A stretch of DNA of 64,000 nucleotides, taken from NCBI RefSeq assembly GCF_000834055.1, contig NZ_JXSQ01000014.1, forward strand, positions 1-64,000, given 5' to 3'. Below, piece by piece: positions 7,890 through 25,462 of this stretch (position 1 is its first letter; each line of letters opens with the position of its first letter). Below the pieces are notes generated by a model. That model did no database searches and was not told the origin of the DNA. It saw only the letters and a program-made list of their open reading frames with translations. A program made the position numbers and the translations under genes. The DNA comes from Leucobacter komagatae. Its GTDB lineage: Bacteria; Actinomycetota; Actinomycetes; Actinomycetales; Microbacteriaceae.

Positions 7890-7895
7890 TCGAGC

Positions 7896-8582: not shown

Positions 8583-8584
8583 GC

Positions 8585-8616
8585 GCTTCCCGCCACCAGG
8601 CAAACTTGGCGGGAGC
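8585..8616. terminator. Bidirectional hairpin between convergent genes
   Basis: GCTTCCCGCCA (8585-8595) and TGGCGGGAGC (8607-8616) pair with one bulged T. It lies between the converging GntR gene and the minus-strand hydrolase. No T tract is present on either side. Confidence 0.5.
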
Positions 8617-8648
8617 GGCAAACGGGGCGCGGCCGCGAGCGTCATGGG

Positions 8649-9536
8649 TTAGCTGTCGACGCGTTCGAGCAGCCAGGTGGCAATGTCGCTGTAGACCGCG
8701 TCGCGGTGCGTTTCGTTGAGGATCTCGTGGCGCGCGCCGGGGTAGATCTTCAGCGCGACGTCACGCACGCCGCGCGCCCGGTAGGCGTCGGCAAGACGGC
8801 GCAGGCCATCACCCCTGGAGAGCGGGTCATCGCCGCCGGAGACGATGAGGAGCGGGACGCCGCCCGCGAGCTTCTCCCCGGGAACACCGAACAGCCTGAG
8901 CCCGTCACTCAGGCCGAAGAGCTTGATGATGTTCGCCTCGAAGCACAGCGGATCCGCCAGGAAGGCAGCGGCGGTCGCCGGGTCACGGCTGAGCCACTCG
9001 AATCCGGTCGCCCCATCATCGGCCGCCCACTTCGCGTTGAGCTTGCCGCTCTCCATGTACCGCGGAGTTCGGTACGCGCTGCCCGAAAGCACAACGGCAT
9101 CCCACTGGCGTGGGTGCTCGTTAATGATCCGCTGCGTCATGAGCGACCCCCACGAATGGCCGAACTGCGCGACCCGCATGCCCGGATGCTCCGCGCGGAT
9201 GATGCCCGTGAGCTGCCGAATCGCCGCCTCGGCTGCCCGCAGGCCACCGGGGCCGAGCTTGCCAAGCAACGTCAGTTCGCCGCCGTGCTGCTTCCTCCCG
9301 GTTTCGCCGTGGCCGCGGTGGTCGTTCGCGTACACGACGAAGCCAGCCTCGGTAAGGAATCGCGCAAACGCCTCGTAACGGAGCGCGTGCTCGCCGATGC
9401 CGTGCGATATCTGGACCGCAGCGTGCGGTTCAGGTGTGGCTGCCGGGTTCGGTGCCCACGCGTATGCGCTGATCTCGATACCGTGCTCATCGGTGTAGGT
9501 GAAGTCGCGGCGTGCCGACGTGTGCTGGGCGTTCAT
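8649..9536 (-). CDS. Alpha/beta hydrolase, monoacylglycerol-lipase-like
   Basis: A 295-residue cytoplasmic serine hydrolase. Visible are the oxyanion segment SHGIGEHALRY (about residue 44), the DHRGHGETG loop, the nucleophile elbow GHSWGS (Ser near residue 123), the acid in SGGDDPLS and the histidine in GARHEILNE. This order matches Hydrolase_4 monoacylglycerol lipases and lysophospholipases. The ATG at 9536 is used because a -10-like GACAAT lies exactly six bases before it; longer frames run into the divergent gene's promoter. No ribosome-binding site is clear. Substrate: an acylglycerol or other carboxylester, not resolved. Confidence 0.85.
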   Translation of the reverse strand: MNAQHTSARRDFTYTDEHGIEISAYAWAPNPAATPEPHAAVQISHGIGEHALRYEAFARFLTEAGFVVYANDHRGHGETGRKQHGGELTLLGKLGPGGLRAAEAAIRQLTGIIRAEHPGMRVAQFGHSWGSLMTQRIINEHPRQWDAVVLSGSAYRTPRYMESGKLNAKWAADDGATGFEWLSRDPATAAAFLADPLCFEANIIKLFGLSDGLRLFGVPGEKLAGGVPLLIVSGGDDPLSRGDGLRRLADAYRARGVRDVALKIYPGARHEILNETHRDAVYSDIATWLLERVDS

Positions 9537-9542
9537 AGCTCC

Positions 9543-9570
9543 ATTGTCGCGCACTGCGCGCAAATATACT
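9543..9570. promoter_or_regulatory. Compact divergent leaderless promoters
   Basis: TATACT (9565-9570) is six bases before the plus-strand ATG at 9577. On the minus strand GACAAT (9548-9543) is six bases before the ATG at 9536. Only 40 bp separate the two start codons, so the promoters are interleaved and each -35 region must lie over or beyond the other -10. Confidence 0.5.
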
Positions 9571-9576
9571 GGGGCA

Positions 9577-10539
9577 ATGCGGCGATCGTTCCTGTGGGTT
9601 GCGCCTCTTGCTCTTGGGGCGCTACTCGCGGTGTCGGCGTGCACGCCAAGCGAGGCTGAGGGAGAAGAACTAGTGGCTGGAGACCTGCAGATCACGGCGT
9701 TCACGGTGCCCGGACCCGGCGCTGCAACCGGACACGGCGAGCACGCCGTTGGCTCCGCCACAGTCCCCGTTCGAGGGTATGAGCCGAGCGTTGGCGTGGA
9801 CCCGTGGGCAACGCTGGTGTGGGCGCACGGCGGGTCCTTCGTGCGCGGCACGCTCGACTGGCCGGAAGCCGACTGGGTATCTCGCAGCTTCGCGGCCGCG
9901 GGGATCAGGGTGATTTCCGTTGATTACGTGCTCGCAAGCGACACGGTCAAGGCCCCAGCCCCGTCAAATGACGTCGCGGCGGTCGTTGCCTGGGCTGGAG
10001 CGGAGTACGACGGCCCGCTCGTCGTTGGCGGTGCAAGCGCGGGCGCGCACCTCGCAGTGCTTGCCACGCTTCACCAGCGTGACAGCGCTCCAACACAGGC
10101 CGCAGCAGCGCTGCTTCTGGAATACCCCACCCTCCACCGAGAGCAGCGGGCAGACCCGCGGATCGCTGACGCGGTGGCCGCGCTCCCGGAGGCACGTCGT
10201 TTCCGGGCAGACCGGATCGCCGAAATGTATGACTTCTATCTCGGTGAGGGCACCGCTGGAGCCGGCCCCGCGATCGTTGCAGGCGAGCTGCCGACGGAGC
10301 GGCTCGCATTGCTACCGCCGACCATCATGGTGAACGCCGACGCGGATGAGCTTCGAGCATCTGGAGAGGAGTTCGCTGAGCAGCTCAGGGCGGCAGGTGT
10401 CACTGTCGTGGAGGCTGTCGAGCCCGACACCGTGCACGGGTATCTCAACCGCCCTGACGAGTCGGAGACTGCGCGTGCCCAGGCGGCCGCCACGATCGAG
10501 CGCTTCGTCACCGAGCTGCGGGTGCTGCTCGAAGCCTGA
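9577..10539 (+). CDS. Secreted lipoprotein esterase, alpha/beta hydrolase fold-3
   Basis: A 320-residue protein with a lipoprotein signal: charged start MRRS, hydrophobic core, then lipobox AVSAC with Cys near residue 22. The mature part is a hormone-sensitive-lipase-type esterase with oxyanion HGGSF, nucleophile GGASAGAH, an aspartate in NADADEL and a histidine in DTVHGYL. It would be membrane-anchored on the outer face and cleave short acyl esters. The start at 9577 gives a normal signal peptide; the 26 extra codons of the longer frame would destroy it. Divergent from the intracellular hydrolase. Confidence 0.82.
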   Translation: MRRSFLWVAPLALGALLAVSACTPSEAEGEELVAGDLQITAFTVPGPGAATGHGEHAVGSATVPVRGYEPSVGVDPWATLVWAHGGSFVRGTLDWPEADWVSRSFAAAGIRVISVDYVLASDTVKAPAPSNDVAAVVAWAGAEYDGPLVVGGASAGAHLAVLATLHQRDSAPTQAAAALLLEYPTLHREQRADPRIADAVAALPEARRFRADRIAEMYDFYLGEGTAGAGPAIVAGELPTERLALLPPTIMVNADADELRASGEEFAEQLRAAGVTVVEAVEPDTVHGYLNRPDESETARAQAAATIERFVTELRVLLEA

Positions 10540-10546
10540 CCGTCTC

Positions 10547-10948
10547 CTAGAGCGCGGCGAGCGCGTCGATCTCGACGAGCATCTCAGGGTGCGGCAGGCC
10601 AACGAACACTGTCGTTCGGCACGGGAGGTTTCCGCTCGGCACGTTGGCGGAAATGAACTCGCCGTACGCCTCGTTCATCGCCGGGAACAGGCTCTGGTCC
10701 GTGAGGTAGACGCGAAACATGAGGACGTCCTCGACCGAGGCGTCGCCCGCTTCGAGGATCGCGCGGATGTTTTCGAGCGTGCGGAGCGTCTGCGCATGGA
10801 CGTCGCCTGGAGCGATGTAGGTGTTCGTATCCGGGTCCATCGGGCCCTGCCCGGAGACCTGCAGCAGATTGCCTTTTCGGATGCCCTGCGAGAAGACGTG
10901 AGCGGGCGCTGGCGCCTGTGAGGTGCGGATAACGGTCGTGTGTGGCAT
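10547..10948 (-). CDS. RidA-family enamine/imine deaminase
   Basis: A 133-residue YjgF/RidA protein of normal length. The C-terminal CRTTVFVGLPHPEMLVEID carries the conserved arginine that binds the substrate carboxylate. RidA proteins hydrolyse reactive 2-amino-acrylate and other enamine or imine intermediates released by PLP-dependent dehydratases. Position at the end of an operon that includes a PLP D-amino-acid dehydratase-like enzyme fits that task. AGAAGGA precedes the ATG at 10948; the gene lies 15 bp after the sugar kinase. Confidence 0.85.
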   Translation of the reverse strand: MPHTTVIRTSQAPAPAHVFSQGIRKGNLLQVSGQGPMDPDTNTYIAPGDVHAQTLRTLENIRAILEAGDASVEDVLMFRVYLTDQSLFPAMNEAYGEFISANVPSGNLPCRTTVFVGLPHPEMLVEIDALAAL

Positions 10949-10963
10949 GAGAATCCTTCTGGG

Positions 10964-11943
10964 TTAGCGGAGAATATCGGCGGTACGTGGGGCGAGATCG
11001 GTCGCGCGAGGGAGGCCCTCCCAGTCGCCGATGATCGTGACGGAGTGCGCCGCTACTCGACCGGCGAAGTCAAGTCGTTCCTGCGGGTCCGTCGCGTGCA
11101 GCACGCCGGAGAGGTAGCCGGCGGCGAAGGCGTCGCCCGCCCCAACCGGGTCTCGCTCGACGACGTGGGTGACGTTCTGATCGAACTCCCCTGTTTCGGC
11201 GACCGAGACGGCGCCGTCGGCGCCGCGCTTCACGACGACTTCCCGCGGGCCGAGCGCACGGATGCCGCGGGCAAGCTCGAGGTCGCGAGCAACGTCGACG
11301 GTATGCGCGGCAGCGGCATCGCCCTCGCTCCCGAGCAAGATGCGCGCCTCTGCGGTCGTCGCGAACACAATGTCGCTTGCGCCGTGAATTCGAGGAGGAC
11401 CCGGCGGGCGTCGTCGGTGTCCCAGAGGCCTGCCCGGTAGTTGAGATCGAGGGAGATCGGCACGCCGGCGCTCTCCGCGCTCTCAACTGCGAGACGCATT
11501 GCGTCGCGCGGTTCCTGTCCGAGCGCGGCTGTGATCCCTGTCAGGTGGAGCAGCCTGGCGGCCCTGATCTCGTCAACGGGAATGTCGGCAGGGCTGAGCC
11601 GCGAGCCTGCGCTGTTCGCCCGCGCGTATTGGACGCGGAGCCTGTCGAACCCCTGCTGGCTGCGCACCATGAGGCCGGTGTGGCCTGGCCCGCTTAGGCC
11701 GAGCGTGCGAACGCCCTCGGCCTGCAACTCGCGTTCGATGAACTCACCGACGCTGTCGTTGCCGAGGCGGCCGACCCACGTCGTTGCGTGACCGAGGCGC
11801 GTGAGGCCGATAGCGACGTTCGTCTCCGCGCCCCCAAACGAGAGGTGGAACTGTGGATGCGACTCGAGGAGGAGCGATGCCTGGGCGGAGAACAGGCCCA
11901 TCGTCTCGCCGAGGGTGACGGTGCGGCCAGAGGGGGGAATCAT
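10964..11943 (-). pseudogene. PfkB-type 2-keto-3-deoxygluconate kinase, frameshifted
   Basis: The N-terminal part (11943 to about 11374) reads as a ribokinase/KDG-kinase with TLGETMGLFSA, FGGAETNVAIGL and LDLNYRAGLWD. The rest (about 11373 to 10964) continues in another frame with FATTAEARILLGSE, VVVKRGADGA and the catalytic DPVGAGDAFAAGY. Restoring one base near 11374 joins the two halves at EFTAQA-DIVFATT without loss. As written the protein would stop being homologous after about 190 residues. The family phosphorylates 2-keto-3-deoxygluconate or related keto-acids. Either a true mutation or a sequencing error; the site is not a homopolymer. ATGA overlap with the gene upstream. Confidence 0.8.
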
Positions 11944-13193
11944 GAGAAATATAGTCCGATCAGTTCACGAATGCGGTGATCGTCGTCGATCACCGGAACA
12001 AGGCTCCACCTATCGAGGGTTGTGCATGGGTGGGAGATGCCTAGTTCGACGAGATCGCCAACGGCGATCTTGGTGGCGGCCTCGGGGTCGAAACGGATGA
12101 AGGCATGCTGATCTGCGAGATCGGTCACGGTTGCGTCAAACGCCCGAGCGTCGGTGCCGCTGCGCGAGCGCGCCCCCAAAACAACGGGCAGGCCCTGGTC
12201 GAAGCCGACGTCTCTGCGGCCGCACAGCAGCAGCGCGAAGCCGGGCTCGGGCACGCTGAGCACCGGTGCCCAGACGCTGATTGCCGGGGAGAAGCGCGGC
12301 CCGGCGGAGTTGCCGCGCGCAGCGGGGCTTACCCGCGAGTAGAGGCCGCTGTCGTGGGTGAGGTAGGCCCCGCTTCGCAGGATGACACGCTCGGCCGTAG
12401 CGCCGCCGGCGATGAGCCCCGCGAATGCCGCGTCGAAGTAAGCGCTGCCGCCGATGCTCACGAGCGGCTCGGCTGGGAGCAGTTCTGCGGCAGCAAGCTC
12501 GCCGAGCGAGGCAGCGAGGTTCGTAGCGAACACGGTGACAGCGGCTGCGATTTCGTCAGGCGAATCGCCGGGGAGCGTGCCCTCGTACGCCGTGAGCCCG
12601 AGCACCCGGACGCCGGGTGTTGCCGCCGCGGCGCGTGCGAGCCCGGCGAGTTCGACGTCGGTGCGGGTGCCGGTGCGGCCGCCGGCGTGCCCGACTTCGA
12701 GCATGACCGCGATCTCCCGCTTCCCGTCCGCAGTGCTCCTGTCGCGGAGCACCTCGAGGCCTGCCAGCGAATCGACAGTGACGACGCACTCGAAGTCGGC
12801 GTCGCGATCGAGCTCCGCACGGAGCCACTCGACGGCCGAGGGTTCGACGAGTTGGTTTGCGAGCAGCAGCCGCGAGATGCCACCGTCGCGGAAGACGCGC
12901 AGTTGGGCCGGCGTCGCTGCCGTTATCGCCCAGGCCCCGGCCCGCATCTGCTCGCGCGCGAGCTGCGGTGACATCGCCGTCTTGCCGTGCGGGGCGAGCT
13001 GTGCGCCGAGCGACCGCACATAGGCCATCATTGCGGCGATGTTCGCGTCAAGGGCTGGCCCGTTGAGGCTCAGCTGGGGAAACTCCCGGTCGGCTGCAAA
13101 CAGCGACGAACCAACGAGGTCGTCGGGGGTGCCAGCGCGCGCGAGAGCGGGGCCGAGCCCTTTCACCAGGCTCAGCTGGTCGCGTGGAATCAT
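11940..13193 (-). CDS. D-serine dehydratase-like PLP enzyme (alanine-racemase-fold amino-acid deaminase)
   Basis: A 417-residue protein of the fold-III PLP family that includes D-threonine aldolase and D-serine dehydratase. The N-terminal barrel carries the PLP lysine in LAPHGKTAMSP (about residue 70) and the downstream segments EVGHAGGRTG and LTAYEG. The C-terminal part has HDSGLY and ISHPC, matching the metal-binding D-serine-dehydratase-like domain. Such enzymes act on D-amino acids with a beta-hydroxyl group, releasing ammonia and a 2-keto acid. In this operon, between a D-acylase and a KDG-type kinase, a hydroxylated D-amino acid such as D-glucosaminate is a plausible substrate (inference). 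Starts and ends in ATGA overlaps. Confidence 0.8.
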   Translation of the reverse strand: MIPRDQLSLVKGLGPALARAGTPDDLVGSSLFAADREFPQLSLNGPALDANIAAMMAYVRSLGAQLAPHGKTAMSPQLAREQMRAGAWAITAATPAQLRVFRDGGISRLLLANQLVEPSAVEWLRAELDRDADFECVVTVDSLAGLEVLRDRSTADGKREIAVMLEVGHAGGRTGTRTDVELAGLARAAAATPGVRVLGLTAYEGTLPGDSPDEIAAAVTVFATNLAASLGELAAAELLPAEPLVSIGGSAYFDAAFAGLIAGGATAERVILRSGAYLTHDSGLYSRVSPAARGNSAGPRFSPAISVWAPVLSVPEPGFALLLCGRRDVGFDQGLPVVLGARSRSGTDARAFDATVTDLADQHAFIRFDPEAATKIAVGDLVELGISHPCTTLDRWSLVPVIDDDHRIRELIGLYFS

Positions 13194-13999
13194 GACGGGA
13201 GTCTCCGATCTTGCGGCAATGCGCCCATCCTTCTGGAGATGTCGGTTGCCGCAGCAATAACGAGTGGGACAAGTTCTGGGACTCGTTCGCGCGGCACGCG
13301 CGACACGGGGCCCGAAACGCTCACTGCGTGAGAGCAGCCGCCCGAGGCGTCGAAAATTGGGGCGGCGACGCAGCGAATACCGTCCTCGTTTTCGACGTCG
13401 TCGATCGCCCACCCCTGTTCGCGGATCGTTGCGAGTTCCGCGCGGAGGCCCGCGGCGGTGGTGATCGTCGTTGCGGTGCGCGCCGGCATCCCTGCGTCGA
13501 TCACCGTCTGTATCGTCTCGTCGTCGGCGAAGGCGAGGATGCACTTCCCTACGCTCGTCGAGTACATGGGCTGCGTGTTGCCGACTCGCGAGATCATGCG
13601 CACGGCGTGTGGGCTGTCGACCTTGTCGATGTACACGACGCTGGGGGTCGCCGAACGTACGAGGTGCGCGGTCTCCATCGTGCTCTCGCTGAGTGTCGCG
13701 AGCGCCTCGTGCATGTCTCGATCTGGGCGCACGCCTGAGAGATAGGCCTGGCCAAGGCGCGCGGTTTCCCAACTCAAGCGGTACGAACCCGATCCCGGGG
13801 CCTGCTCGAGGAACGACGTCTCGAGCATTGGTTGGAGCAGTCGTGTCACCGTGCTCTTGTTGAGGTCGAGCTCGGTCGCGATCTGGGTGATGGTGCGGCC
13901 ATCCCCATTGAGGTCGTCACCGAGAAGCTGGAGTATCGAGAGCGCGCGGCGAAGCGAGGCTGAATTGTTCCGCGGAGCGGAGTCTGAGGTCGTTGTCAT
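13190..13999 (-). CDS. IclR-family transcriptional regulator
   Basis: A 269-residue regulator with the IclR winged helix near residues 15-80 (RALSILQLLGDD, TQIATELDLNKSTVTRLLQ) and the ligand domain after residue 95 (YSTSVGKCILAF, DDVENEDGIRCVAAPIFD). The family includes KdgR, a repressor of keto-deoxygluconate genes. The ATG at 13999 is preferred because it overlaps the previous stop as ATGA, like its neighbours; a GTG at 14014 would add five residues. The likely targets are the two TTGCAATGCA palindromes in the divergent promoter 1.7 kb upstream. Confidence 0.85.
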   Translation of the reverse strand: MTTTSDSAPRNNSASLRRALSILQLLGDDLNGDGRTITQIATELDLNKSTVTRLLQPMLETSFLEQAPGSGSYRLSWETARLGQAYLSGVRPDRDMHEALATLSESTMETAHLVRSATPSVVYIDKVDSPHAVRMISRVGNTQPMYSTSVGKCILAFADDETIQTVIDAGMPARTATTITTAAGLRAELATIREQGWAIDDVENEDGIRCVAAPIFDASGGCSHAVSVSGPVSRVPRERVPELVPLVIAAATDISRRMGALPQDRRLPS

Positions 14000-15591
14000 G
14001 AGGTTGGTGTCCACATCGGTCGGCGGAGGCCGTGTCCCGGATAGCGGTCGGTCAGAGTTCCTTGGGAAAGCACCGGGACGCCGGCGATGAATACTTCCAT
14101 GATGCCCCGTGCCGGCCGAGTGGGGGCGTCGTAGTCCGCGCCGTCCGCGATCTCATCGGGGTGCACGAGGCAAAAGTCGGCGATGGATCCGGGTCGTGCG
14201 CGACCGCGGTCGCCGAGGCTGAAGCGGGCGGCGGCGCGGTAGGACAGGTGGTCTGCGGCCTCGGCCCAGCTCCAGTCTCTCCAGTCGACCACGTGGCGCC
14301 GAAGCATACGGGCGAAGCTTCCCCAGCCCCTGGGATGCGGATGGGAGCCGAGGTAGATTCCGTCGGAGCCGCCGAGGTGGGCAGGATGGTTAGCGATTGC
14401 GCGCACATCCGCTATTTGATTGCTCGCCGGCTGTTGCACGATTGCGCCGACGCCGAGACCCGTTGCGAGAAGCAACTCGCAGACGAACTCGCCGAGTTCT
14501 TGCCCCGTAGCGGCAGCGGCAGCGGGTAGCAGCTGCCCCTCAACCCAGCGCCAGTCGGGGTGCGCCGCACTCGCGACCGTGACGCGCGAGAGGAGCTCTG
14601 CGATGCTGGGGAACCAGTCGCGTCTGAGCTCCTCGAGGGTTGCCCGATCGGCGAGCGCGGCGAGGGTTGCGGCGGGGCCGCCCTCCTGGAGGCGCGCGGG
14701 GAGCGCCAGCATTGTCAGGATCGTGTTCCCTCTTCTGTATGGGTACGAATCGAACGTGACGCTGATCCCGCTGTCAATGGCCTCGTCTATCGCGGGGAGC
14801 ACGAGCGCCGCAGGAGCGTGCAGGTGCGAGATGTGGATCGGTGCTCCGGCTTCGCGTGCAAGCCCAAAGAACTCGGCGAGACCCTGAGGCGCAGACTGCT
14901 CGTAGCCCCTGAGATGGGCGACGAGGGGCGCGCCCGATGCTGCCGCGATGCCTGCGTAACGCAACAGCTCACGGCGGTCGGCGAACCCGTTCGGCACATA
15001 CTCAAGCCCGAGGGAGATGCCGCAGGCGCCCGCATCCAGTGACGCGACCGCAAGTTCGGTGGCGGCCTCAAGCTGCGATTCTGTCAGCGGCTCGGCCGTG
15101 AAGCCGGCGACGGCGGAGCGGAGCGTGCCGGCCGGCAGCAGCATTGCCGCGTTAATCCGAGACTGCGAGGAAAAGTGGGTGAGCACATCGTCGACCGAGC
15201 AGTCTCCTGAGAGTGCGGGCGGAACCGGGCCGTTGATCGCCGAGAAGTAGCGTTCGTTCATGGGTGCCGATTCGGCGGTCGCCGGGGCGAAGGAAACACC
15301 GTCTTGGCCGATGATCGCTGTGGTAATGCCCTGACGAAGCAGGCCGAGTTCGGGGGTCTCGCGGCCGAGCGCGCCCTCCGCGTGGCTGTGTGCGTCGATG
15401 AACCCTGGCATCAGAATGCGGCCAGCGGCTGCGAGGGTGGCGAATCCCTGCGGCAGGGCGGCGTCGGGGGGAAGCACCTCGCGCACGACGCCCGCAGCGA
15501 TGACAACGGTCGCTCTGTCGAGCCCGGTCATGCCCTCGCTGGGGATGAGCGCATCGCGGATGGCGAACGCGTCGTGCTGAGTCGGTGCCAC
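13996..15591 (-). CDS. N-acyl-D-amino-acid deacylase (D-aminoacylase family amidohydrolase)
   Basis: A 531-residue amidohydrolase. The metal motif GFIDAHSH is at residues about 63-70, followed by HISHLHAP, a segment LRGYEQ, and LGSDGIYLG with the conserved aspartate before HPRGWGSFARML, all typical of D-aminoacylases. The family removes acetyl or other acyl groups from D-amino acids. GTG at 15591 is the chosen start because AAAGGGG lies a few bases upstream; the longer frame would run through the -10 box. First gene of the minus-strand operon deacylase, iclR, PLP enzyme, kinase, ridA. Confidence 0.85.
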   Translation of the reverse strand: MAPTQHDAFAIRDALIPSEGMTGLDRATVVIAAGVVREVLPPDAALPQGFATLAAAGRILMPGFIDAHSHAEGALGRETPELGLLRQGITTAIIGQDGVSFAPATAESAPMNERYFSAINGPVPPALSGDCSVDDVLTHFSSQSRINAAMLLPAGTLRSAVAGFTAEPLTESQLEAATELAVASLDAGACGISLGLEYVPNGFADRRELLRYAGIAAASGAPLVAHLRGYEQSAPQGLAEFFGLAREAGAPIHISHLHAPAALVLPAIDEAIDSGISVTFDSYPYRRGNTILTMLALPARLQEGGPAATLAALADRATLEELRRDWFPSIAELLSRVTVASAAHPDWRWVEGQLLPAAAAATGQELGEFVCELLLATGLGVGAIVQQPASNQIADVRAIANHPAHLGGSDGIYLGSHPHPRGWGSFARMLRRHVVDWRDWSWAEAADHLSYRAAARFSLGDRGRARPGSIADFCLVHPDEIADGADYDAPTRPARGIMEVFIAGVPVLSQGTLTDRYPGHGLRRPMWTPTS

Positions 15592-15645
15592 TTTGCCCCT
15601 TTCACAATCTCGCCGACGGGCGGAGTGCCGTCGGCGTGTGTTCTC

Positions 15646-15718
15646 ACTGTAGCCACAATCACCATAATTTTGCAATGCAACATACCTCGTTGCAATGCAG
15701 AAGATTTGCTGGTACCTT
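15646..15718. promoter_or_regulatory. Mirror-image divergent promoters with two IclR-type operators
   Basis: Palindrome 1 is TTGCAATGCAA at 15670-15680 and palindrome 2 is TTGCAATGCAG at 15690-15700, centres 20 bp apart. The minus promoter uses TTGCAA (15675-15670), 18 bp, TACAGT (15651-15646). The plus promoter uses TTGCAA (15690-15695), 17 bp, TACCTT (15713-15718). Each -35 is thus inside one palindrome, so one regulator could block or time both operons. Confidence 0.65.
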
Positions 15719-15765
15719 CACCATGAGCTTCAACAGTGGCTTCCAACGACGGAAGGAAATCCTCA

Positions 15766-17298
15766 ATGCATAGTCCTCATCGCTCCCGCGCAGCTGCCGC
15801 TGCCGCGGGGCTTGGAATCGCGAGCCTCGCGCTCCTGACAGCGTGTAGCCCACCGAGTGCTGGCACGGGTGGTGGTGGCGACGCGTCGATCATCACCGTT
15901 GCCGAAACCACCGCGCCATCGTCACTCGACCCCCAGCGCTCGAGCATGTTCGCCGATCGCTTCGCGTGGCAGCTGAGCTACGAGTGCCTCATGACCACGA
16001 GCCCGGACGGCGAGGTGCAGCCGAGCCTCGCTACGGGTTACGAGCTTTCCGAAGACTCGCTCGAATACACCTTCACCCTCCGTGATGGCGTGAAGTTCTC
16101 CAACGGTGACACCCTCGACGCAGACGACGTTGTCTACACATTCGAGCGTCTCACCGAGAGCCCCGAGCGCATCGACATTGAACTCTTCCCGACGCTCTCA
16201 CACGCTGAGAAGGTCGACGATATGACCGTGAAGTTTGTGCTCAAGAGCCCCGATGCTGGCTTTATCAACAATATGGGCAACCCGCTCGTGTGGGGCTGCT
16301 CGATCCTCAGCGCCGCGGCCGAGGGCGATAACCTCACGACCAACATGGTCGGCACGGGCCCGTGGACGCAGGTCGCGTACGAGCCCGAGACCAGCCTGGA
16401 GTTCGAACGCAATGAAGAGTACTGGGGTGAACAGGCCAAGTCTGAGGCGCTGAACATCCTCTACATGCCCAACATGGGCACGCAGGTGAGCAACCTCAAG
16501 GCAGGCAAGGTCGACATCGTATTCCCCGACCAGGGCGGCGTCGCAGACCTTGAGAAGGAAGGGTTCACAGTCACCAACGTGAATACCGACTCGACGATCT
16601 TCCTCCAGATCAACAACACGAAGGCGCCGTTCGATAACCCGAAGGTGTTGCAGGCGATGGCGCTCGCTTTCGACCGCCAGGAGCTCGCCGACAAGGCGTA
16701 CGGCGGAGCCGCGCAGCCGAGCGGGTATCTCCCGCCGAGCCTCGCATGGGCGCCGAAGGTTGAGGACCTACCGAACCACACACAAGACCTCGAAAAGGCC
16801 AATGCGCTCATCAAGGAAGCCGGCTTCGAGAGTGGCGTTGACCTCAATCTCGTGTACATCAACGGGTACGACCCCGGCACGAACGACCTTCTCGCCGTGA
16901 TGCAGGATCAGCTCGCCAAGGCAGGCTTCAACGTCGAGCTCGATCCGCTCGAGGCTGCCGCCTGGAGCGAGCGCCGGGGCGATCTCAATGCGTATGAGCT
17001 CAGCTGGAATGCTCAGTCGTACTACTCGAACCCCTACCAGTACGTCGCACCGGTTCCCGGGCGTCAGGGCGACGTGCCCGAGTCGCTGCAGACACTGATC
17101 GACAACGCGTGGAGCGCGTCGAGCGAGACCGAGTACCAGGAAGCGCTCAGCGCAATCGCGGTGCACGAAGCCGAGATCGTCTACCCGACGCTCACGCTGC
17201 TCGCACGCGATATGTTCGTGGCCCACGACGCCAAGGTGAAGGGCGTCGAGATTCCGTCGAGCCAGAGCCGCACCTTCCTCGCGCAGGTCACCAAGTAG
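15766..17298 (+). CDS. Peptide/oligosaccharide ABC transporter substrate-binding lipoprotein (family 5)
   Basis: A 510-residue extracellular solute receptor. The signal peptide ends in lipobox LLTAC (Cys near residue 27), followed by a Gly-rich linker. The mature protein has the family-5 features LDPQRS, LATGYELSEDSLEYTFTLRDGVKFSNGD and VGTGPW. It would deliver a di/oligopeptide, glycopeptide or amino-sugar-containing ligand to the permease. The ATG at 15766 follows GGAAGGA; an upstream GTG at 15736 would precede the signal peptide needlessly. First gene of the plus-strand operon that includes the deacylase-linked catabolic genes. Confidence 0.9.
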   Translation: MHSPHRSRAAAAAAGLGIASLALLTACSPPSAGTGGGGDASIITVAETTAPSSLDPQRSSMFADRFAWQLSYECLMTTSPDGEVQPSLATGYELSEDSLEYTFTLRDGVKFSNGDTLDADDVVYTFERLTESPERIDIELFPTLSHAEKVDDMTVKFVLKSPDAGFINNMGNPLVWGCSILSAAAEGDNLTTNMVGTGPWTQVAYEPETSLEFERNEEYWGEQAKSEALNILYMPNMGTQVSNLKAGKVDIVFPDQGGVADLEKEGFTVTNVNTDSTIFLQINNTKAPFDNPKVLQAMALAFDRQELADKAYGGAAQPSGYLPPSLAWAPKVEDLPNHTQDLEKANALIKEAGFESGVDLNLVYINGYDPGTNDLLAVMQDQLAKAGFNVELDPLEAAAWSERRGDLNAYELSWNAQSYYSNPYQYVAPVPGRQGDVPESLQTLIDNAWSASSETEYQEALSAIAVHEAEIVYPTLTLLARDMFVAHDAKVKGVEIPSSQSRTFLAQVTK

Positions 17299-17308
17299 CA
17301 GTCCAGCT

Positions 17309-17336
17309 GTGTGGGCCGGGTTTGCCCGGCCCACAC
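17309..17336. other. Intercistronic hairpin after the binding-protein gene
   Basis: A 12-bp perfect stem, GTGTGGGCCGGG and CCCGGCCCACAC, closes a TTTG loop between the receptor gene and the first ATPase. There is no T tract. Such hairpins commonly protect the abundant receptor mRNA from decay and reduce downstream reading; that role is inferred. Confidence 0.6.
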
Positions 17337-17355
17337 GCCCAGAAAGGTTCGGCCG

Positions 17356-18155
17356 ATGCTCGAGCTCAAGAACGTATCTATTTCCTATCGAGCTGGCACG
17401 AAACCGGCAGTGTCAGGCGTCTCGCTGTCGATCGCAGCCGGGGAACGCGTCGGGATTGTCGGAGAGTCCGGCTCGGGCAAGAGCACGCTCACGTCGGCCG
17501 TGCTGCGCTCACTTCCCAGCGGCACGCGAGTCGATGGAACGATCACCTACCGTGGCCAAGACATCGGCGCGATGAAAGCAACGCAGTTTCGGGAGCTGCG
17601 AAGCGATCAGATCGCCCGGATTCCCCAGGATCCACTTGCCAGCCTCAACCCGGTGATCCGCGTTGGCGACCAGCTTCGACACGTGATCCAAGCACACCGG
17701 AAGCTCTCGAAAGCCGCGTGTATTCCGCTGATTGAGGCCGGCCTCGCAGAGGTCGGAATTCCCGAGCCGAGTCTGAAGCGCCGTGCCTTCCCGCACGAAC
17801 TCTCGGGCGGAATGCGCCAACGTGTACTGATCGCGATGTCGCTGATCAACGAACCCGACCTACTCATCGCGGACGAGCCAACGACGGCCCTAGACGTGAC
17901 CGTGCAGGCCCAGATCCTCGACCTGCTACAGCGCGAACTTGATCAGCGTGGCATGTCGCTGCTCCTTATCACCCACGACATCGGCGTCGTTGCGGAAGTG
18001 TGTTCGCGAATCATCGTCATGCGCAACGGCGAGATCGTCGAAGACGGCCAGACCGTCGACCTCATGGCAAACCCGCAGCACCCATACACGCAGCAGCTCT
18101 TCGCCGCGGCGAGCATGCACGACGCGAACACCTCAGGAAAGACGGGGGCGGCACG

Positions 18156-18159
<4 letters not shown>
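17356..18159 (+). CDS. Peptide-type ABC transporter ATP-binding protein, DppD-like
   Basis: A 267-residue ATPase: Walker [10 protein letters not shown] (about residue 37), Q-loop in [12 protein letters not shown], signature LSGGMRQR, Walker [13 protein letters not shown] and H-loop LLLITHDIG. The HPYTQQLF tail is typical of oligopeptide ATPases, though the usual Cys-rich cluster is absent, ending soon after. AGAAAGG lies nine bases before the ATG. Ends in an ATGA overlap with the second ATPase. Confidence 0.92.
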
Positions 18160-19144
<985 letters not shown>

Positions 19145-19148
<4 letters not shown>

Positions 19149-20092
19149 CGAAATACATTCTCGGCCGAATCGCGTCATCGCTCGGCGTGCTCTTCGTGCT
19201 CAGCGCGCTCATCTTCTTCGCAGGGCGGGGCCTCATCGAGGGCAACCCGGCAACGCTCATCGCAGGGTCGAAGGCAACACCGGAGCGCGTGGCAGAGCTC
19301 GAACACGAGCTCGGCCTCGACCGCCCCATCCTTGTCCAATACCTCGAATGGTTGTGGGGCGTTCTGCGCGGCGACTTCGGCACCTCGCCGTTCTCCGGGC
19401 TGCAGACGACGGAGGTGCTGCAGCAACAAGCGCCTGTCTCGTTTGAGCTCGCGATTCTCAGCTTGATCGTCGCCGTGCTCATCGGTGTGCCGCTCGGTGT
19501 GATCGCGGCGAAGCGCGCGGGCAGCCCAGTCGACGTGTCGATCCGCATCCCCATGATCCTGCTGTTCGCGATCCCCGGCTTTATCACGGGCACGATCGCG
19601 ATCATCCTCGCCACGACGTTCCTCACGAACCTCTACTCGCCGACGTACATCCGTTTCGAAGATAGCCCGCTCGGCAATCTCCAAAGCATGATCCTGCCCG
19701 CTGTGGCGGTCGGGATCCCAACCGCGCCACTCATCATGCAGATGACCAGAGCATCGATGATTGAGATTCTGCACCAGCCATTCGTCGCGAGCGCGCGAGT
19801 GAACGGCCTCTCAGACAGGCTGGTCACCTACGGCTACGCGCTGCGGGCAGCCCTCCCGCCCATCCTCACCTTCATCGGTTTCACGTTCGGCGCTCTCATC
19901 GGCGGCCTGCTCATCGTCGAACAGATATTCAGCCTGCCTGGGCTTGGGCGCGGCATTCTGCAGTCGATTGGCACCCGCGATTTTGTGCAACTCAATGCCC
20001 AGGCGATGGTGCTCGCAGGGTCGTTCATCGCAGCGAACCTCATCGTTGACCTCCTCGTGCCCGCCCTCGACCGAAGGATTGCGCGCAAATGA
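19145..20092 (+). CDS. Peptide-type ABC transporter permease, DppB-like
   Basis: A 315-residue membrane protein with six predicted helices. It begins with the family hallmark TKYILGRIASSLGVLFVLS, a large outer loop with LGLDRPILVQYLEWL, and the EAA loop ARVNGLSDRLVTYGYALRAALPP. The C-terminus GILQSIGTRDF fits DppB/OppB. The ATG overlaps the previous stop as ATGA, and the stop overlaps DppC. Confidence 0.92.
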
Positions 20093-20958
20093 CCACGCAG
20101 CTCACAGACACCATCGTGAACACCCTGCCGCGCGCCAAACAGCGGCGAAGACTCTCGCGCGTCGGCATCATCGCCTTCGGCGTACTCGCCGCATTCATCC
20201 TGCTCGCGGTCATCGGCCCCTGGCTCGCACCGTTCGACCCGAACCAGATTAATGTCGGCGAGCGCCTGCTGCGGCCAACGGGCGAGTTTTTCTTCGGAAC
20301 CGACGCCCTCGGCCGTGATCAGCTGTCACGAGTGCTTACCGCGATCCGCCCTGCGGTCATCGCGGCGTTCACCGCGACGCTCTTCGCGCTCGTTATCGGC
20401 ACGGCCCTTGGTCTGATCGCGGGCTTCTGGGGCGGCAAGATCGACAGTCTTGTCTCGCGGATCATCGACTTCCTGTTCGCGATCCCCGAGTACCTTCTCG
20501 CGATCCTCGTACTTGCGATCCTCGGCCGTGGCCTGCTCAACGCTGCGATCGCCATTGGCATCGTATTCATACCCCGGTTCGCCCGGACGGTGCGCAGCGC
20601 AACCCAAGAGATCATGGCGCGCAACTACATTAGTGCGGCGCGACTGTGCGGCCGCGGGCAGGTCTCGATCATGCTGCGTCACGTGCTCCCGAACATCACC
20701 TCACCCCTGATCGTGATCGCGGCGATCAACCTCTCGATGTCGTCGGGTGCGTACGCTGCGCTCAGCTTCCTCGGGTTCGGGGTGCGCCCGCCGGAGCCAG
20801 ACTTCGGCTCGATGATCTCCGACTCGCTGCAATACATCGGGAGTGACCCGTGGCTCATTGTGCCGCCGGCGCTCGTGTTCGTGACGTTCATTCTTGCGAT
20901 CAACCTTGCAGGCGATGCGCTGCGCGACCTGCTCGACCCCAAATCCGTAAAGGCATAG
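20089..20958 (+). CDS. Peptide-type ABC transporter permease, DppC-like
   Basis: A 289-residue permease with the N-terminal OppC-N helix, the FGTDALGRDQLSR block that precedes the core, and the EAA loop ISAARLCGRGQVSIMLRHVLPN. It ends with LRDLLDPK, the normal DppC ending. Pairs with the DppB-like subunit to form the channel. Completes the importer: receptor, two ATPases, two permeases. Confidence 0.92.
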   Translation: MTTQLTDTIVNTLPRAKQRRRLSRVGIIAFGVLAAFILLAVIGPWLAPFDPNQINVGERLLRPTGEFFFGTDALGRDQLSRVLTAIRPAVIAAFTATLFALVIGTALGLIAGFWGGKIDSLVSRIIDFLFAIPEYLLAILVLAILGRGLLNAAIAIGIVFIPRFARTVRSATQEIMARNYISAARLCGRGQVSIMLRHVLPNITSPLIVIAAINLSMSSGAYAALSFLGFGVRPPEPDFGSMISDSLQYIGSDPWLIVPPALVFVTFILAINLAGDALRDLLDPKSVKA

Positions 20959-20964
20959 GAACAG

Positions 20965-22341
20965 ATGATGACCCAGTTGACGACTACCCAACTCGCTGCG
21001 GTACAGGCGGCGCTCGACGCTGAGGTGCCGCAGCTGCTAGCCGAGCACCGCGTGCCGGGTGTCGGGATCGGTGTTCGCATCGGCGACGCAGAGATCGCTA
21101 GCGGCTACGGTGTGACAAATCTCGAACACCCGCTGCCGGTCACAGGCGACACGATCTTTCAGGTCGGCTCAATCTCGAAGACGTTTGTCGGCGTCGTCGC
21201 CGCGCAGCTCGAGGCAGAGGGCCTGCTCGACATCGACGCGCCCGTCGCGCCACTGCTCGCGGGGCTCGGCGCACTCGACGAGCGCATCACCATGCGGCAC
21301 CTCCTCACACACGGTTCAGGGATCGACGCGCAGTACATGATCGGTCGCGCACACGAACTCCTCGCGGAGCACGCCGACGACAGCATCCAGGCCTCGATTA
21401 CTCACTACGCAGAGGACGAGCTGATGTTTGTTCCAGGCTCCGACTTCTCGTACTCCGGCCCGGGGTTCATGGTTGCGGGCGCCGTGATCGAGCGGATCAC
21501 GGGCAAAGCCTGGGCCGATGTGCTGCGCGAGCGCGTGCTCCTGCCTGCTGGGATGGAGCAGACCTTCACCACGGCGGACGAAGCTATCACCCATCGGGTC
21601 GCTGCGCCGCACGACATCACAGAAGACGAGCCGCGCCTCGCACGGAATGAGGGGTGGCAGCTCGGCTGGCAGCTTCCCGGGTGGGACGTTCCAGGTGGGG
21701 GAGTGCTCAGCACACCGCGACAGCTCATGCGCTACTCGCAGTACGCGGCGGAAACCAATGACGCACTCGGGTTCACGCGCGTCCTCGCATCGCGCCAGGT
21801 TCCCGGTCTCGATGTCGGCTACGCCTGGATGATTGAGCCAAAGCGCGACAGGGCGGCCTTCGGCCACGACGGACTGACGATCGGCTACGCGAGCCGCTTC
21901 ATGATGATTCCCGAGGATGCGCTCTCCTACGCGATCCTGTCGAACTCCGTTAAGGGGAAGCCGCTCGTGCGGGCGGTTGAGGGTGTCATCCTCGACGCGC
22001 TCTACGGGGTGCAACAGGCGAGCACGGTTCCTGCGTTCGACCCCGAGCAATTCAGCGAGCTCGTCGGCCTCTACGACTGCGGGTTTTACGGGCAGGTTAG
22101 GCTGCGGGTTCGAGACGACGGGCGGGCGTTCGAGATGATCTCGCTGCCAGCAAACCGCGGTGATGGGTCGTTTACGATCGACCCGATGTCGAGTCCTTGG
22201 CTGCTGCCGGTTGGTGAGGGGCTGCTCTCGGTCGACCCGGGGATCGATGACCCCGACCATTTGGTTCCGTATGTGCGCAACGCCGCCGGCGCAGTGACCG
22301 CCCTACGCATTGGTGAGCGTATCGCCCGCAAGGTGCTGTGA
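20965..22341 (+). CDS. Beta-lactamase-related serine hydrolase, D-aminopeptidase/esterase-like
   Basis: A 458-residue class-C-type hydrolase with no signal peptide, so probably cytoplasmic. The SxxK motif is SISK (Ser69, Lys72), the second motif is Tyr-Ser-Gly in SYSGPGF (about residue 155), and the third is the HDG triad in FGHDGLTIG (about residue 298). These match the serine-beta-lactamase fold used by D-aminopeptidases, DD-peptidases and esterases. In an operon with a peptide importer and next to D-amino-acid enzymes it probably trims imported D-containing peptides or amides. AGGAACAG lies before the ATG. Confidence 0.82.
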   Translation: MMTQLTTTQLAAVQAALDAEVPQLLAEHRVPGVGIGVRIGDAEIASGYGVTNLEHPLPVTGDTIFQVGSISKTFVGVVAAQLEAEGLLDIDAPVAPLLAGLGALDERITMRHLLTHGSGIDAQYMIGRAHELLAEHADDSIQASITHYAEDELMFVPGSDFSYSGPGFMVAGAVIERITGKAWADVLRERVLLPAGMEQTFTTADEAITHRVAAPHDITEDEPRLARNEGWQLGWQLPGWDVPGGGVLSTPRQLMRYSQYAAETNDALGFTRVLASRQVPGLDVGYAWMIEPKRDRAAFGHDGLTIGYASRFMMIPEDALSYAILSNSVKGKPLVRAVEGVILDALYGVQQASTVPAFDPEQFSELVGLYDCGFYGQVRLRVRDDGRAFEMISLPANRGDGSFTIDPMSSPWLLPVGEGLLSVDPGIDDPDHLVPYVRNAAGAVTALRIGERIARKVL

Positions 22342-23024
22342 CTGCCGTGCGCAACAAACACGAGACGCTCCGCGCGGTCAGCCTCGGGGGCATAGTCGCG
22401 GTGCTGCGCGCGAGCAGCGCTGAGCGCGCGATCGTTGCCGGGGAGGCACTCATCGACGCAGGTATTGGCGCTATCGAGGTGACCTTCACTGTGCCGGAGG
22501 CGCCGCGGGTGATTGCGGAGCTCGCCGCGTTCGCTGGGGATCGCGCGGTGATCGGCGCAGGCACTGTAACGGCGGTCGCGCAGGTCGACGCCGCGGTCGC
22601 GAACGGTGCGGAGTTTCTCGTCTCTCCCGGCCACGCTGCTGATGTCACCGCGCAGATCATCGACTCGGGTGCGCTCGCGATGATCGGCGCATTTACCGCC
22701 GGTGAGGTGCTCGCCGTGATGCGGGCTGGCGCCGACATAGTGAAGTTTTTCCCAGGTGGGATCGCTGGCCCCGCGGGTATCAGGGCGCTCAGCGGCCCTT
22801 ATCCCGATGCGCGGTTCGTGCCGACGGGCGGGGTGAACCCTGGCAACCTTGGCGCCTGGTTCGAAGCCGGGGCAATCGCGGTCGGTGCCGGCTCGGAGCT
22901 CGCGCCGGCCGCCGCCGTTGAAACGGGAGACACGGGGGCTATTCAGGCGCGGGCGAGAGAGTTTCTTGCGGCTTTCTCTGAACTGGGCACGACCGTTGAT
23001 GCGGCGCCGCCTGGCCACCCCTAG
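22338..23024 (+). CDS. eda: KDPG / 4-hydroxy-2-oxoglutarate aldolase
   Basis: A 228-residue class I aldolase. Key segments are GIGAIEVTFTVPEA (base and substrate binding), VIGAGTVTA, FLVSPG and the Schiff-base lysine in ADIVKFFPGG, then FVPTGGVN. It splits 2-keto-3-deoxy-6-phosphogluconate to pyruvate and glyceraldehyde 3-phosphate. The GTG start overlaps the hydrolase stop as GTGA. Together with the sugar kinase on the opposite strand it would finish a keto-deoxygluconate route. Confidence 0.9.
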   Translation: MTAVRNKHETLRAVSLGGIVAVLRASSAERAIVAGEALIDAGIGAIEVTFTVPEAPRVIAELAAFAGDRAVIGAGTVTAVAQVDAAVANGAEFLVSPGHAADVTAQIIDSGALAMIGAFTAGEVLAVMRAGADIVKFFPGGIAGPAGIRALSGPYPDARFVPTGGVNPGNLGAWFEAGAIAVGAGSELAPAAAVETGDTGAIQARAREFLAAFSELGTTVDAAPPGHP

Positions 23025-23033: not shown

Positions 23034-23981
23034 ATGAGCGATTTCGTCTTGTCACTGCCGACCGATCCCGACCTGCGAGAGGCCGTCGGTGAGATCGACG
23101 GCGTCGAGATTGTCGAGTGGGACGTCGAAGGGCCGGCGCCTCGCCAGAGCATTGACATCGTCGTGCCGCCCTACTGGGGAGGCATCCGCAGGCTCGCGAA
23201 CCTCGCCGAGATCGACGTGAAGCTCGTGCAGTGGCAGTCGATCGGCTTCAACGGGCTCGACCGCTACGTTCCCGCCGGCCTGCCAGTCGCAAACGCGACA
23301 AGCGTGCACGAAGCGTCGACAGCGGAGCTCGCACTCGGGCTGACGATCGCAGCGCAGCGTGGCCTGCCAGCATTCACGCGAGATGGTCTCGAAGGCAGGT
23401 GGGATCTGCGCACGTTCCCAAGCCTCGCCGACCGACGCGTACTCATCGTCGGTTACGGCGGGGTTGGCAAGGCAATCGAGGCGCGCCTTGCTGGCTTCGA
23501 GACGCAGATCACGCGGCTCGCGCGTTCGCCGCGCGACGAGCAGAACCTTGCGGGTGAGCCCGTGCATGTGCACGGTATCGACGAGTTGACGAACCTCCTT
23601 GCGGATACCGAGATCCTCATCGTCGGGTTGCCGTTGAGCGATGCAACGCGGGGCCTGTTTGACGCGGCGGCGCTTGCCGCGCTGCCGGACGACGCGCTCG
23701 TGGTGAACGTGGGGCGCGGGCCGCTTATCGACACGGACGCCCTCGTAGCCGAACTGACAGCGGGCAGGCTGCGCGCGGCGCTCGACGTCACAGACCCTGA
23801 GCCACTGCCCAGCGATCACCCGCTGTGGTCGCTGCCGAATGCGCTCATCACGCCCCACGTTGGCGGTGACTCGACCGCGATGCTGCCGCGGATGGTGGAT
23901 CTGGTCCGCAGGCAGATCGCGCACCTGCGCGCCGGCGAGGCTCCGGAGAACATCGTGCTGGGGGAGTGGCCGGGAGCGTAA
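23034..23981 (+). CDS. D-isomer-specific 2-hydroxyacid dehydrogenase
   Basis: A 315-residue NAD(P)-dependent oxidoreductase. The Rossmann fold carries VGYGGVGKAIEARL; the substrate side has VNVGRGPLID (Arg) and the catalytic pair Glu in DVTDPEPLP and His in TPHVGGDS. It reduces a 2-keto acid or oxidises a D-2-hydroxyacid. TAGACT lies six bases before the ATG at 23034, so it appears to be separately transcribed as a leaderless mRNA inside the end of the operon. No ribosome-binding site is needed or seen. Confidence 0.85.
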   Translation: MSDFVLSLPTDPDLREAVGEIDGVEIVEWDVEGPAPRQSIDIVVPPYWGGIRRLANLAEIDVKLVQWQSIGFNGLDRYVPAGLPVANATSVHEASTAELALGLTIAAQRGLPAFTRDGLEGRWDLRTFPSLADRRVLIVGYGGVGKAIEARLAGFETQITRLARSPRDEQNLAGEPVHVHGIDELTNLLADTEILIVGLPLSDATRGLFDAAALAALPDDALVVNVGRGPLIDTDALVAELTAGRLRAALDVTDPEPLPSDHPLWSLPNALITPHVGGDSTAMLPRMVDLVRRQIAHLRAGEAPENIVLGEWPGA

Positions 23982-25410: not shown

Positions 25411-25462
25411 GAGGCGTACTCCTTCTCAAGGAAGACGTGTGGCAACGAACGGTGTAGCGACT

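What the first reader, a model, noticed from the sequence alone, without database searches (positions are those of the whole stretch)
10547..23024. Possible catabolic system for an acylated amino-sugar acid or D-amino acid, with import, trimming, deacylation, deamination and cleavage in one locus
Seen: deacylase, IclR regulator, D-serine-dehydratase-like PLP enzyme, KDG-type kinase, RidA on one strand; a full peptide-type importer, serine D-aminopeptidase-like hydrolase and KDPG aldolase on the other. Known: deacylation of an N-acyl-D-amino acid and beta-elimination of a hydroxy-D-amino acid give a 2-keto acid; for D-glucosaminate that acid is 2-keto-3-deoxygluconate, the substrate of KDG kinase then KDPG aldolase; RidA quenches enamine by-products. 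Inference: N-acetyl-D-glucosaminate or a related peptidoglycan/chitin-derived amino-sugar acid is the substrate. A PLP enzyme of D-serine-dehydratase fold, rather than the usual ammonia-lyase, would be new for this step.
Basis: partly seen in the sequence, partly recalled or inferred. Interest (0 to 1): 0.8.

Follow-up and report, generated by a model that had tools for sequence, protein, structure and literature searches.

The report
Amino-sugar acid breakdown gene cluster
An actinobacterium carries one co-regulated set of genes that probably imports an acylated amino-sugar acid and turns it into central carbon, a route already proven in marine bacteria but built here with a different deacylase and importer, and with one gene apparently broken.

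Summary
The gene content is real and is one unit. Two other genomes keep the divergent layout (G051; Leucobacter MAG L110, cut before the aldolase). All three carry a 30-bp double operator between the halves; it is unique in the window's genome. Corrections: the kinase is split by a frameshift (intact in both relatives), and the last dehydrogenase is absent from G051's locus.

New here is an actinobacterial counterpart whose deacylase clade has Asp at the zinc-ligand Cys (30 of 33 deacylases beside PLP genes) and lacks OngB's specificity residues. In 60 PLP-centred loci, kinase and aldolase occur together 19 times, aldolase alone once. Some relatives add GntP permeases, lactonases or GH20.

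Against a simple chitin reading, the window's genome has no LPMO_10, GH18 or GH20 match, and its importer and CubicO-type hydrolase look peptide-directed, so the exact substrate is open. New variant of a known kind; confidence 0.55.

The parts
10547..10948 (-). RidA-family enamine/imine deaminase, 133 aa (OngD-like role)
   Evidence: Pfam Ribonuc_L-PSP E 1.8e-29; 82% identical and syntenic in G051
10964..11368 (-). C-terminal piece of the split PfkB (KDG-type) kinase
   Evidence: PfkB E 4.1e-15, profile 187-295; 54-56% to the G051 kinase
11230..11943 (-). N-terminal piece of the split PfkB (KDG-type) kinase; reading frame lost near 11370
   Evidence: PfkB E 2.1e-18, profile 27-186; intact 317-aa orthologue in G051 whose best PDB match is 2-keto-3-deoxygluconate kinase 1v19
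11940..13193 (-). Fold-type III PLP enzyme, 417 aa, D-serine deaminase/OngC-like: proposed D-glucosaminate-type deaminase
   Evidence: Pfam D-ser_dehydrat and Ala_racemase_N; best PDB match 3gwq D-serine deaminase E 4.9e-64; PHGKT and SHPC motifs kept
13190..14014 (-). IclR-family regulator
   Evidence: Pfam IclR_C E 1.4e-44, HTH_IclR; NCBIfam BhcR/KdgR-like, below cut-offs
13996..15591 (-). D-aminoacylase-fold deacylase of the Asp-ligand (GQDG) clade; the start at GTG 15591 is my choice
15670..15699 (+). Double operator: two copies of TTGCAATGCA, 20 bp apart, in the divergent promoter (that it is an operator is inferred)
   Evidence: Same two copies and spacing in G051 and L110; 3 pattern hits at these two sites against 0.08 expected in the window; one place in the own genome at up to 2 mismatches, 0 for the reversed control
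15766..17298 (+). Lipoprotein-type solute-binding protein, SBP_bac_5 family
   Evidence: Pfam SBP_bac_5 E 4.8e-80; PDB matches named heme-binding protein, dipeptide-binding protein, AgaA and others
17356..18159 (+). ABC transporter ATPase 1 (Opp/Dpp type)
   Evidence: ORF; 76% and syntenic in G051
18156..19148 (+). ABC transporter ATPase 2 (Opp/Dpp type)
   Evidence: ORF; 78% and syntenic in G051
19145..20092 (+). ABC permease 1
   Evidence: ORF; 84% in G051
20089..20958 (+). ABC permease 2
   Evidence: ORF; 83% in G051
20965..22341 (+). Serine hydrolase of the class C beta-lactamase/CubicO kind; no signal peptide apparent by eye
   Evidence: Pfam Beta-lactamase E 5.7e-59; PDB 7spn (IS11), 2qmi (Pbp related beta-lactamase), 4y7p (alkaline D-peptidase); 66% and syntenic in G051
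22338..23024 (+). KDPG/KHG aldolase
   Evidence: Pfam Aldolase E 8e-38; NCBIfam eda TIGR01182 167.5 bits, over its cut-off of 156.05; 63% and syntenic in G051
23034..23981 (+). D-2-hydroxyacid dehydrogenase; same strand, 10 bases downstream; membership of the unit uncertain
   Evidence: Pfam 2-Hacid_dh_C E 2e-43; no match in the G051 stretches read

Best explanation
The locus is one IclR-controlled catabolic unit for an N-acylated 2-amino-2-deoxy aldonic acid, most likely of the N-acetyl-D-glucosaminate type, possibly imported as a conjugate. Proposed order: the Opp-type ABC importer brings the compound in; the cytoplasmic CubicO-type hydrolase removes or opens a linked group (weakest step); the amidohydrolase deacylates the amine; the fold-III PLP enzyme eliminates water and ammonia to give 2-keto-3-deoxygluconate, with RidA clearing the enamine/imine; the PfkB kinase phosphorylates it; KDPG aldolase yields pyruvate and glyceraldehyde 3-phosphate. 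Shown here by sequence: gene families, synteny with G051 and L110, shared two-copy promoter element, repeated linkage of kinase and aldolase with this enzyme pair, kept catalytic motifs. Inferred by analogy with the characterised ong enzymes: every reaction. In the window's own genome the kinase reads as two pieces, so the route is either recently broken there or the assembly has an error.
For: Kinase and aldolase co-occur in the PLP gene's neighbourhood (19 both, 1 aldolase only, 40 neither; Fisher 1e-14) and track the deacylase (18 of 19 kinase loci against 15 of 41 others). The combination needs 8 changes on the PLP tree, at least 6 forced by starred branches, so it is not one inherited block. 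80 deacylase-centred loci from genome contigs: PLP in 66, RidA in 63, kinase in 25, aldolase in 18, GH20-like in 15, GntP-like in 9. Tsukamurella has RidA, IclR, kinase, PLP, deacylase, KDPG aldolase and a gluconate:H+ symporter side by side. A lactonase family recurs beside it in 7 loci (one member Pfam-tested). The published ong pathway uses the same kinds of enzyme in the same order (PMC9537276). Promoter element and synteny join the two halves.
Against: The window genome has no LPMO_10, GH20 or GH18 match, and only 4 of 54 family genomes with this deacylase have an LPMO_10 match (5 of 245 without; Fisher p 0.059). OngB's specificity residues are not kept. The importer and serine hydrolase resemble peptide systems; Phyllobacterium pairs such importers, a serine hydrolase (27% to the window's) and the PLP enzyme without kinase or deacylase. 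The PLP family is broad: OngC itself also takes D-serine and D-threonine (PMC9537276). Many loci have deacylase plus PLP without kinase or aldolase nearby: 15 of 33 in the family set, 38 of 66 in the wider set. The kinase is split in the window.
Confidence: 0.55

Rival explanations
1. D-amino-acid peptide scavenging: the importer takes up acylated or D-residue peptides, the serine hydrolase is a D-peptidase, the deacylase frees D-serine or D-threonine, and the PLP enzyme makes pyruvate or 2-oxobutanoate; kinase and aldolase serve another intermediate.
Against: Does not explain why KDG-type kinase and KDPG aldolase are linked in the conserved unit, nor GntP, lactonase and GH20 in relatives.
Confidence: 0.22
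2. Same route, other stereoisomer: N-acetyl-D-galactosaminate or a related acid, passing through 2-keto-3-deoxygalactonate.
For: A Klebsiella record has the PLP enzyme, a deacylase, RidA and a sodium:solute symporter beside a DGOK kinase and a 2-dehydro-3-deoxy-6-phosphogalactonate aldolase; both kinase pieces match bifunctional KDG/KDGal kinase models below cut-off.
Against: The window aldolase passes only the eda model's cut-off, not the galactonate one's; the intact G051 kinase matches a KDG kinase best.
Confidence: 0.12
3. The unit is a decaying remnant in this strain: the kinase is a pseudogene and the route no longer runs. (Not exclusive with the main reading of what the unit was for.)
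For: Frame lost in the kinase; no other close KDG kinase in the genome, only a 34%-identical PfkB on another contig.
Against: Both pieces stay well conserved in their own frames (54-60% to G051), the other genes of the unit are open frames, draft assembly of 62 contigs; a sequencing error is not excluded.
Confidence: 0.3
4. Two unrelated neighbours: a D-amino-acid operon and a peptide-import operon that happen to be divergent.
For: In other genomes the core occurs with other transporters (GntP, MFS, sugar ABC).
Against: Same layout in G051 and L110 with a shared two-copy promoter element; the aldolase sits in the importer half and the kinase in the other.
Confidence: 0.03

Closest known systems
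ong cluster of Pseudoalteromonas prydzensis (oxidative chitin utilisation; PMC9537276: outline, passages and one section seen; PMC12017989: abstract, results parts 1-3 of 4 and passages seen)
   Same: Deacylase of D-aminoacylase fold, fold-III PLP deaminase, KDG kinase, RidA; KDPG aldolase in Vibrio, Klebsiella and Serratia versions; order of reactions.
   Different: Asp instead of Cys zinc ligand and other pocket residues in the deacylase; PLP enzyme about 32% identical to the P. piscicida one and outside its clade; IclR instead of MurR/RpiR; Opp-type ABC plus CubicO hydrolase instead of TonB receptor, SSS symporter and GH20; no LPMO_10 match in the genome; kinase frameshifted.
Core cluster of other Actinomycetota found here (e.g. 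Tsukamurella L094, Agromyces subbeticus L085/L157, Saccharothrix, Amycolatopsis)
   Same: Deacylase clade, PLP enzyme, kinase, RidA, IclR; the aldolase in some.
   Different: Other transporters (GntP, MFS, sugar ABC; Agromyces has a peptide-type ABC, 25-41% identical); lactonase or GH20 in some; no CubicO hydrolase match.
D-aminoacylases AfDam (1m7j) and BbDam (3gip)
   Same: Fold; columns of the HxH, two metal His, catalytic Asp and carboxylate Arg.
   Different: Asp at the Cys ligand; Lys254 and Glu226 (OngB numbering) replaced by His or Thr and by Tyr.
Fold-III D-serine dehydratase family (3gwq; 3anu; D-threonine aldolase 4v15 is a more distant match)
   Same: PLP lysine motif PHGKT and SHPC metal motif (eliminase type; meaning of the motifs recalled).
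   Different: Substrate not known; genomic setting points to a sugar acid.

Membership tests
ong (GlcNAc1A) cluster | OngB-type deacetylase with Cys97 metal ligand and Ser292/Gln298 pocket | tested here: not met
   Window has Asp at Cys97, Thr at Ser292, Ala in the Gln298 column, Tyr at Glu226
ong (GlcNAc1A) cluster | PLP enzyme inside the OngC clade | tested here: not met
   P. piscicida, Klebsiella and Cupriavidus rows form a starred set without the window (SH-aLRT 98, quick tree, no bootstrap, no test_one_clade)
ong (GlcNAc1A) cluster | Fold-III PLP deaminase, RidA and KDG-type kinase beside a D-aminoacylase-fold deacylase | tested here: met
   All present; kinase split in the window, intact in G051 and L110
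ong (GlcNAc1A) cluster | KDPG aldolase (in some ong clusters) | tested here: met
   22338-23024, over the eda cut-off
ong (GlcNAc1A) cluster | GH20 hexosaminidase and LPMO to make the substrate | tested here: not met
   No GH20, GH18 or LPMO_10 match in the genome; GH20-like gene in 15 of 80 relatives' loci
ong (GlcNAc1A) cluster | MurR/RpiR regulator, TonB receptor, SSS symporter | tested here: not met
   IclR regulator and Opp-type ABC importer instead
ong (GlcNAc1A) cluster | Activity on GlcNAc1A and GlcN1A | not testable with these tools
   Needs enzymes
D-aminoacylase family (subtype V amidohydrolase) | D-aminoacylase-like barrel fold | tested here: met
D-aminoacylase family (subtype V amidohydrolase) | Cys/His/His metal site | tested here: not met
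   Asp in the Cys column of the window; GQDG in 30 of 33 deacylases found beside PLP genes, GNCG in 3; both His kept
Fold-III D-serine dehydratase/deaminase family | PLP lysine and His/Cys metal motif of eliminating enzymes (motif meaning recalled) | tested here: met
   PHGKT and SHPC kept; Pfam D-ser_dehydrat
2-keto-3-deoxygluconate kinase | Continuous PfkB kinase of KDG type | tested here: not met
   Split in the window; the G051 orthologue is continuous and matches KDG kinase 1v19 best, E 6e-50
CubicO/Pab87-type D-peptidase (name recalled) | Class C beta-lactamase fold hydrolase acting on D-residue peptides | tested here: inconclusive
   Family match only; activity unknown

The most novel reading that the evidence does not exclude
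Actinobacteria own an independently assembled pathway for oxidised amino sugars, whose first enzyme is a new family of carbohydrate deacetylases with an Asp-His-His metal site; the window's version has been re-tooled with a peptide-type importer and a CubicO hydrolase to feed on a peptide- or acyl-linked amino-sugar acid not yet known as a bacterial nutrient.
Probability: 0.25. Interest if true: 0.7.

Novelty: new variant of a known kind. Interest (0 to 1): 0.42.

Why it matters
The published survey found the oxidative amino-sugar route, with one exception, only in Gammaproteobacteria (section read). For its genome survey it required at least four co-occurring genes at over 30% identity to the P. 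prydzensis cluster (passage); the deacylase here is 26% and the PLP enzyme 32% identical to those of P. piscicida, so clusters like this would tend to be missed. If the assignment holds, actinobacteria also recycle oxidised amino sugars, through a separately recruited deacylase family. The odd importer and hydrolase of the window's version also make a testable puzzle about which conjugated sugar acid is eaten.

Tried and rejected
Two unrelated operons: rejected on the shared promoter element and synteny. Chitin degradation by this strain: not supported, no LPMO_10, GH20 or GH18 match in the draft genome. OngB orthology: rejected on residues and tree. Using substrate hints from the binding protein: uninformative, 94 PDB sequences matched, best 60 shown, of mixed names. 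Residues that separate kinase-linked from other PLP enzymes: Gln82 in 24 of 24 against 11 of 33, but the sets are related by descent, so I draw nothing from it (L093 and L096 were put into the kinase group by hand there). Fold comparison did not usefully separate OngB from D-aminoacylases. Paper searches: no actinobacterial GlcNAc1A catabolism seen in the listings, which were capped for some (15 of 1,148, 8 of 191, 12 of 362, 10 of 16); one search found nothing; only open-licence papers are held. In PMC2842291 one passage proposes a glucosaminate deaminase gene with a KDG kinase in Cupriavidus.

Dropped, chosen or set by hand: the 60 PLP-centred loci are 60 of the 95 places other than the window's, two of them from one genome (G064); L031's aldolase was added from L091; the window's own kinase counted as present on the tree although split. 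The 109 rows were picked because they hold GQDG, so the Asp count there is circular and I do not use it; the scan also used that motif as one of two patterns. L063 fell out of the deacylase tree. L054 looks incomplete because kinase and deacylase lie in one merged open frame in my list. PLP neighbours of the 54 high-scoring deacylase genomes were read by eye.
Full report
What is there. The minus-strand half is RidA, PfkB kinase, PLP enzyme, IclR, deacylase; the plus-strand half is binding protein, two ATPases, two permeases, serine hydrolase, KDPG aldolase, then a D-2-hydroxyacid dehydrogenase. The kinase is in two frames. The window's genome is a 3.67-Mb draft of 62 contigs. It is probably Leucobacter: genome G291, listed as the same genus, has a contig of 1,280,327 bases, the length of a Leucobacter tardus contig; this is inference.

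One unit. G051 carries the same order: RidA, kinase (one 317-aa gene), PLP (61%), IclR, deacylase (59%), and divergently binding protein (75%), ATPases, permeases (83-84%), serine hydrolase (66%), KDPG aldolase (63%). The uncultured Leucobacter contig L110 has the same order up to its contig end just past the serine hydrolase, with an intact kinase; whether an aldolase follows cannot be seen. In all three the divergent promoter holds TTGCAATGCA twice, 20 bp apart. In the window the pattern occurs at 15670-15699 (3 hits, two of them the two strands of one site, against 0.08 expected), and the double site is the only place in the genome at up to 2 mismatches, with 0 for the reversed control. A scan of the other loci for the exact repeat on one strand found it only in G051 and L110. 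That an IclR protein binds it is inference.

Kinase and aldolase belong to it. From 299 family genomes searched with the PLP enzyme, 95 matched; I read 60 of the 95 non-window places with up to 10 kb either side where the contig allowed. Kinase and aldolase were both present in 19, aldolase alone in 1, neither in 40 (Fisher 1e-14); a deacylase was present in 18 of 19 kinase loci and 15 of 41 others (p 1.6e-5). On the PLP tree (72 rows, quick method, no bootstrap) the combination needs 8 changes, at least 6 forced by starred branches, against a mean of 19 in shuffles. The window pairs with G051 only; L110 was not in that tree. The Pseudoalteromonas row sits elsewhere with Klebsiella and Cupriavidus. 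Among the 54 genomes with a high-scoring deacylase (bits over 570; next 460), 53 have the PLP gene within about 6 kb (read by eye).

Outside the family. The GH20, GntP, MFS and lactonase counts are phmmer matches to one query each, not Pfam checks. Sixteen of the 80 are shorter than 21 kb, cut by contig ends, so absences there are weak. 38 of the 66 with PLP have neither kinase nor aldolase. In Sanguibacter the run is GH20, deacylase, PLP, RidA. Sugar-type ABC binding proteins and ROK or LacI regulators occur around some. Four loci, three of them titled Planctomycetes, form a deacylase subclade without PLP nearby.

The known pathway. In P. prydzensis the ong genes encode OngB, OngC, KdgK and OngD; deletion of each of these stops growth on GlcNAc1A; OngB deacetylates GlcNAc1A, OngC makes KDG and ammonia and also takes D-serine and D-threonine, KdgK makes KDG-6-P; OngD's role is unknown; some ong clusters add kdgA (PMC9537276: passages, section 17). 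OngB's structure and pocket are in PMC12017989 (results parts 1-3 of 4 read). I used the P. piscicida cluster (L093, unannotated record) as reference: PLP, a regulator-sized gene, deacylase, RidA, a transporter-like gene, kinase, GH20, and a gluconolactonase-like gene after it. Its GH20 and gluconolactonase are Pfam-tested; the others are assigned by match, length and order against the published cluster, not by experiment.

How the window differs. The window's deacylase has Asp where OngB has its Cys ligand, Tyr for Glu226, His for Lys254, Gly-Asn-Thr for Ser290-Ser291-Ser292 and Ala in the Gln298 column. Of 33 deacylases found beside PLP genes, that is without choosing by this motif (though by likeness to the window's enzyme), 30 have GQDG and 3 GNCG. 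In the 109 GQDG rows aligned with OngB, Tyr replaces Glu226 in all, Lys254 is His in 73, Thr in 30, other in 6; both metal His, the catalytic Asp, the carboxylate Arg, Tyr194 and Tyr285 are kept in 109 and the HxH pair in 108. On the tree the 57 GQDG rows plus one row without the exact motif form one starred branch apart from OngB. The model (pLDDT 95) matches D-aminoacylases and OngB nearly equally. Importer, CubicO hydrolase and deacylase together were seen only in the window, G051 and L110; Agromyces (L085/L157) and L041 have an importer without the hydrolase, Phyllobacterium L100 both without a deacylase, L075 a weak hydrolase match without importer.

What is open. The genome has no LPMO_10, GH20 or GH18 match (the controls rang in 1, 4 and 6 of 14 known genomes), and in the family LPMO_10 occurs in 4 of 54 deacylase genomes and 5 of 245 others (p 0.059). 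So the acid is probably scavenged, or the substrate is another acylated amino-sugar acid or conjugate. A second KDG kinase is not evident. Of 48 loci with a kinase match (some the same genome twice), 45 cover at least 85% of the model in one frame; the exceptions are the window, a partial one in Cupriavidus and a merged-frame artefact in L054.

Verdict. Observation partly confirmed, interpretation partly supported, the claimed new enzymatic step already published. What remains of interest is an actinobacterial variant with a distinct deacylase clade and an unusual import module.

Noticed in passing
L096 (Klebsiella pneumoniae CP125156.1), 2763-9164: PLP enzyme, deacylase and RidA beside a DGOK-family kinase, a 2-dehydro-3-deoxy-6-phosphogalactonate aldolase and a sodium:solute symporter: a possible galactosaminate version.
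   Followed up: partly
L100 (Phyllobacterium plasmid), 1-17152: PLP deaminase gene flanked by two peptide-type ABC importers and a class C beta-lactamase-family serine hydrolase, no kinase or deacylase match nearby.
   Followed up: partly
L032 and L036: Deacylase, PLP and RidA with a 308-aa gene between RidA and deacylase, DHDPS family in L032 (L036's not tested), perhaps a direct KDG aldolase in place of kinase plus KDPG aldolase.
   Followed up: no
L047 12243-16136 and similar loci (about ten): PLP gene near glutamine synthetase-like, peptidase C26 and amino-acid permease genes, which recalls a gamma-glutamyl polyamine route; another setting for the same enzyme family.
   Followed up: no
L107, L111, L115 (Planctomycetes): Members of the Asp-ligand deacylase clade without PLP, RidA or kinase match nearby; role unknown.
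   Followed up: no
L093 17744-18643: A gluconolactonase-like (SGL) gene directly after the ong genes in Pseudoalteromonas piscicida.
   Followed up: no
window 24817-26497: Two adjacent minus-strand reading frames that look by eye like a secreted polymorphic-toxin-type protein and a small partner; not analysed.
   Followed up: no
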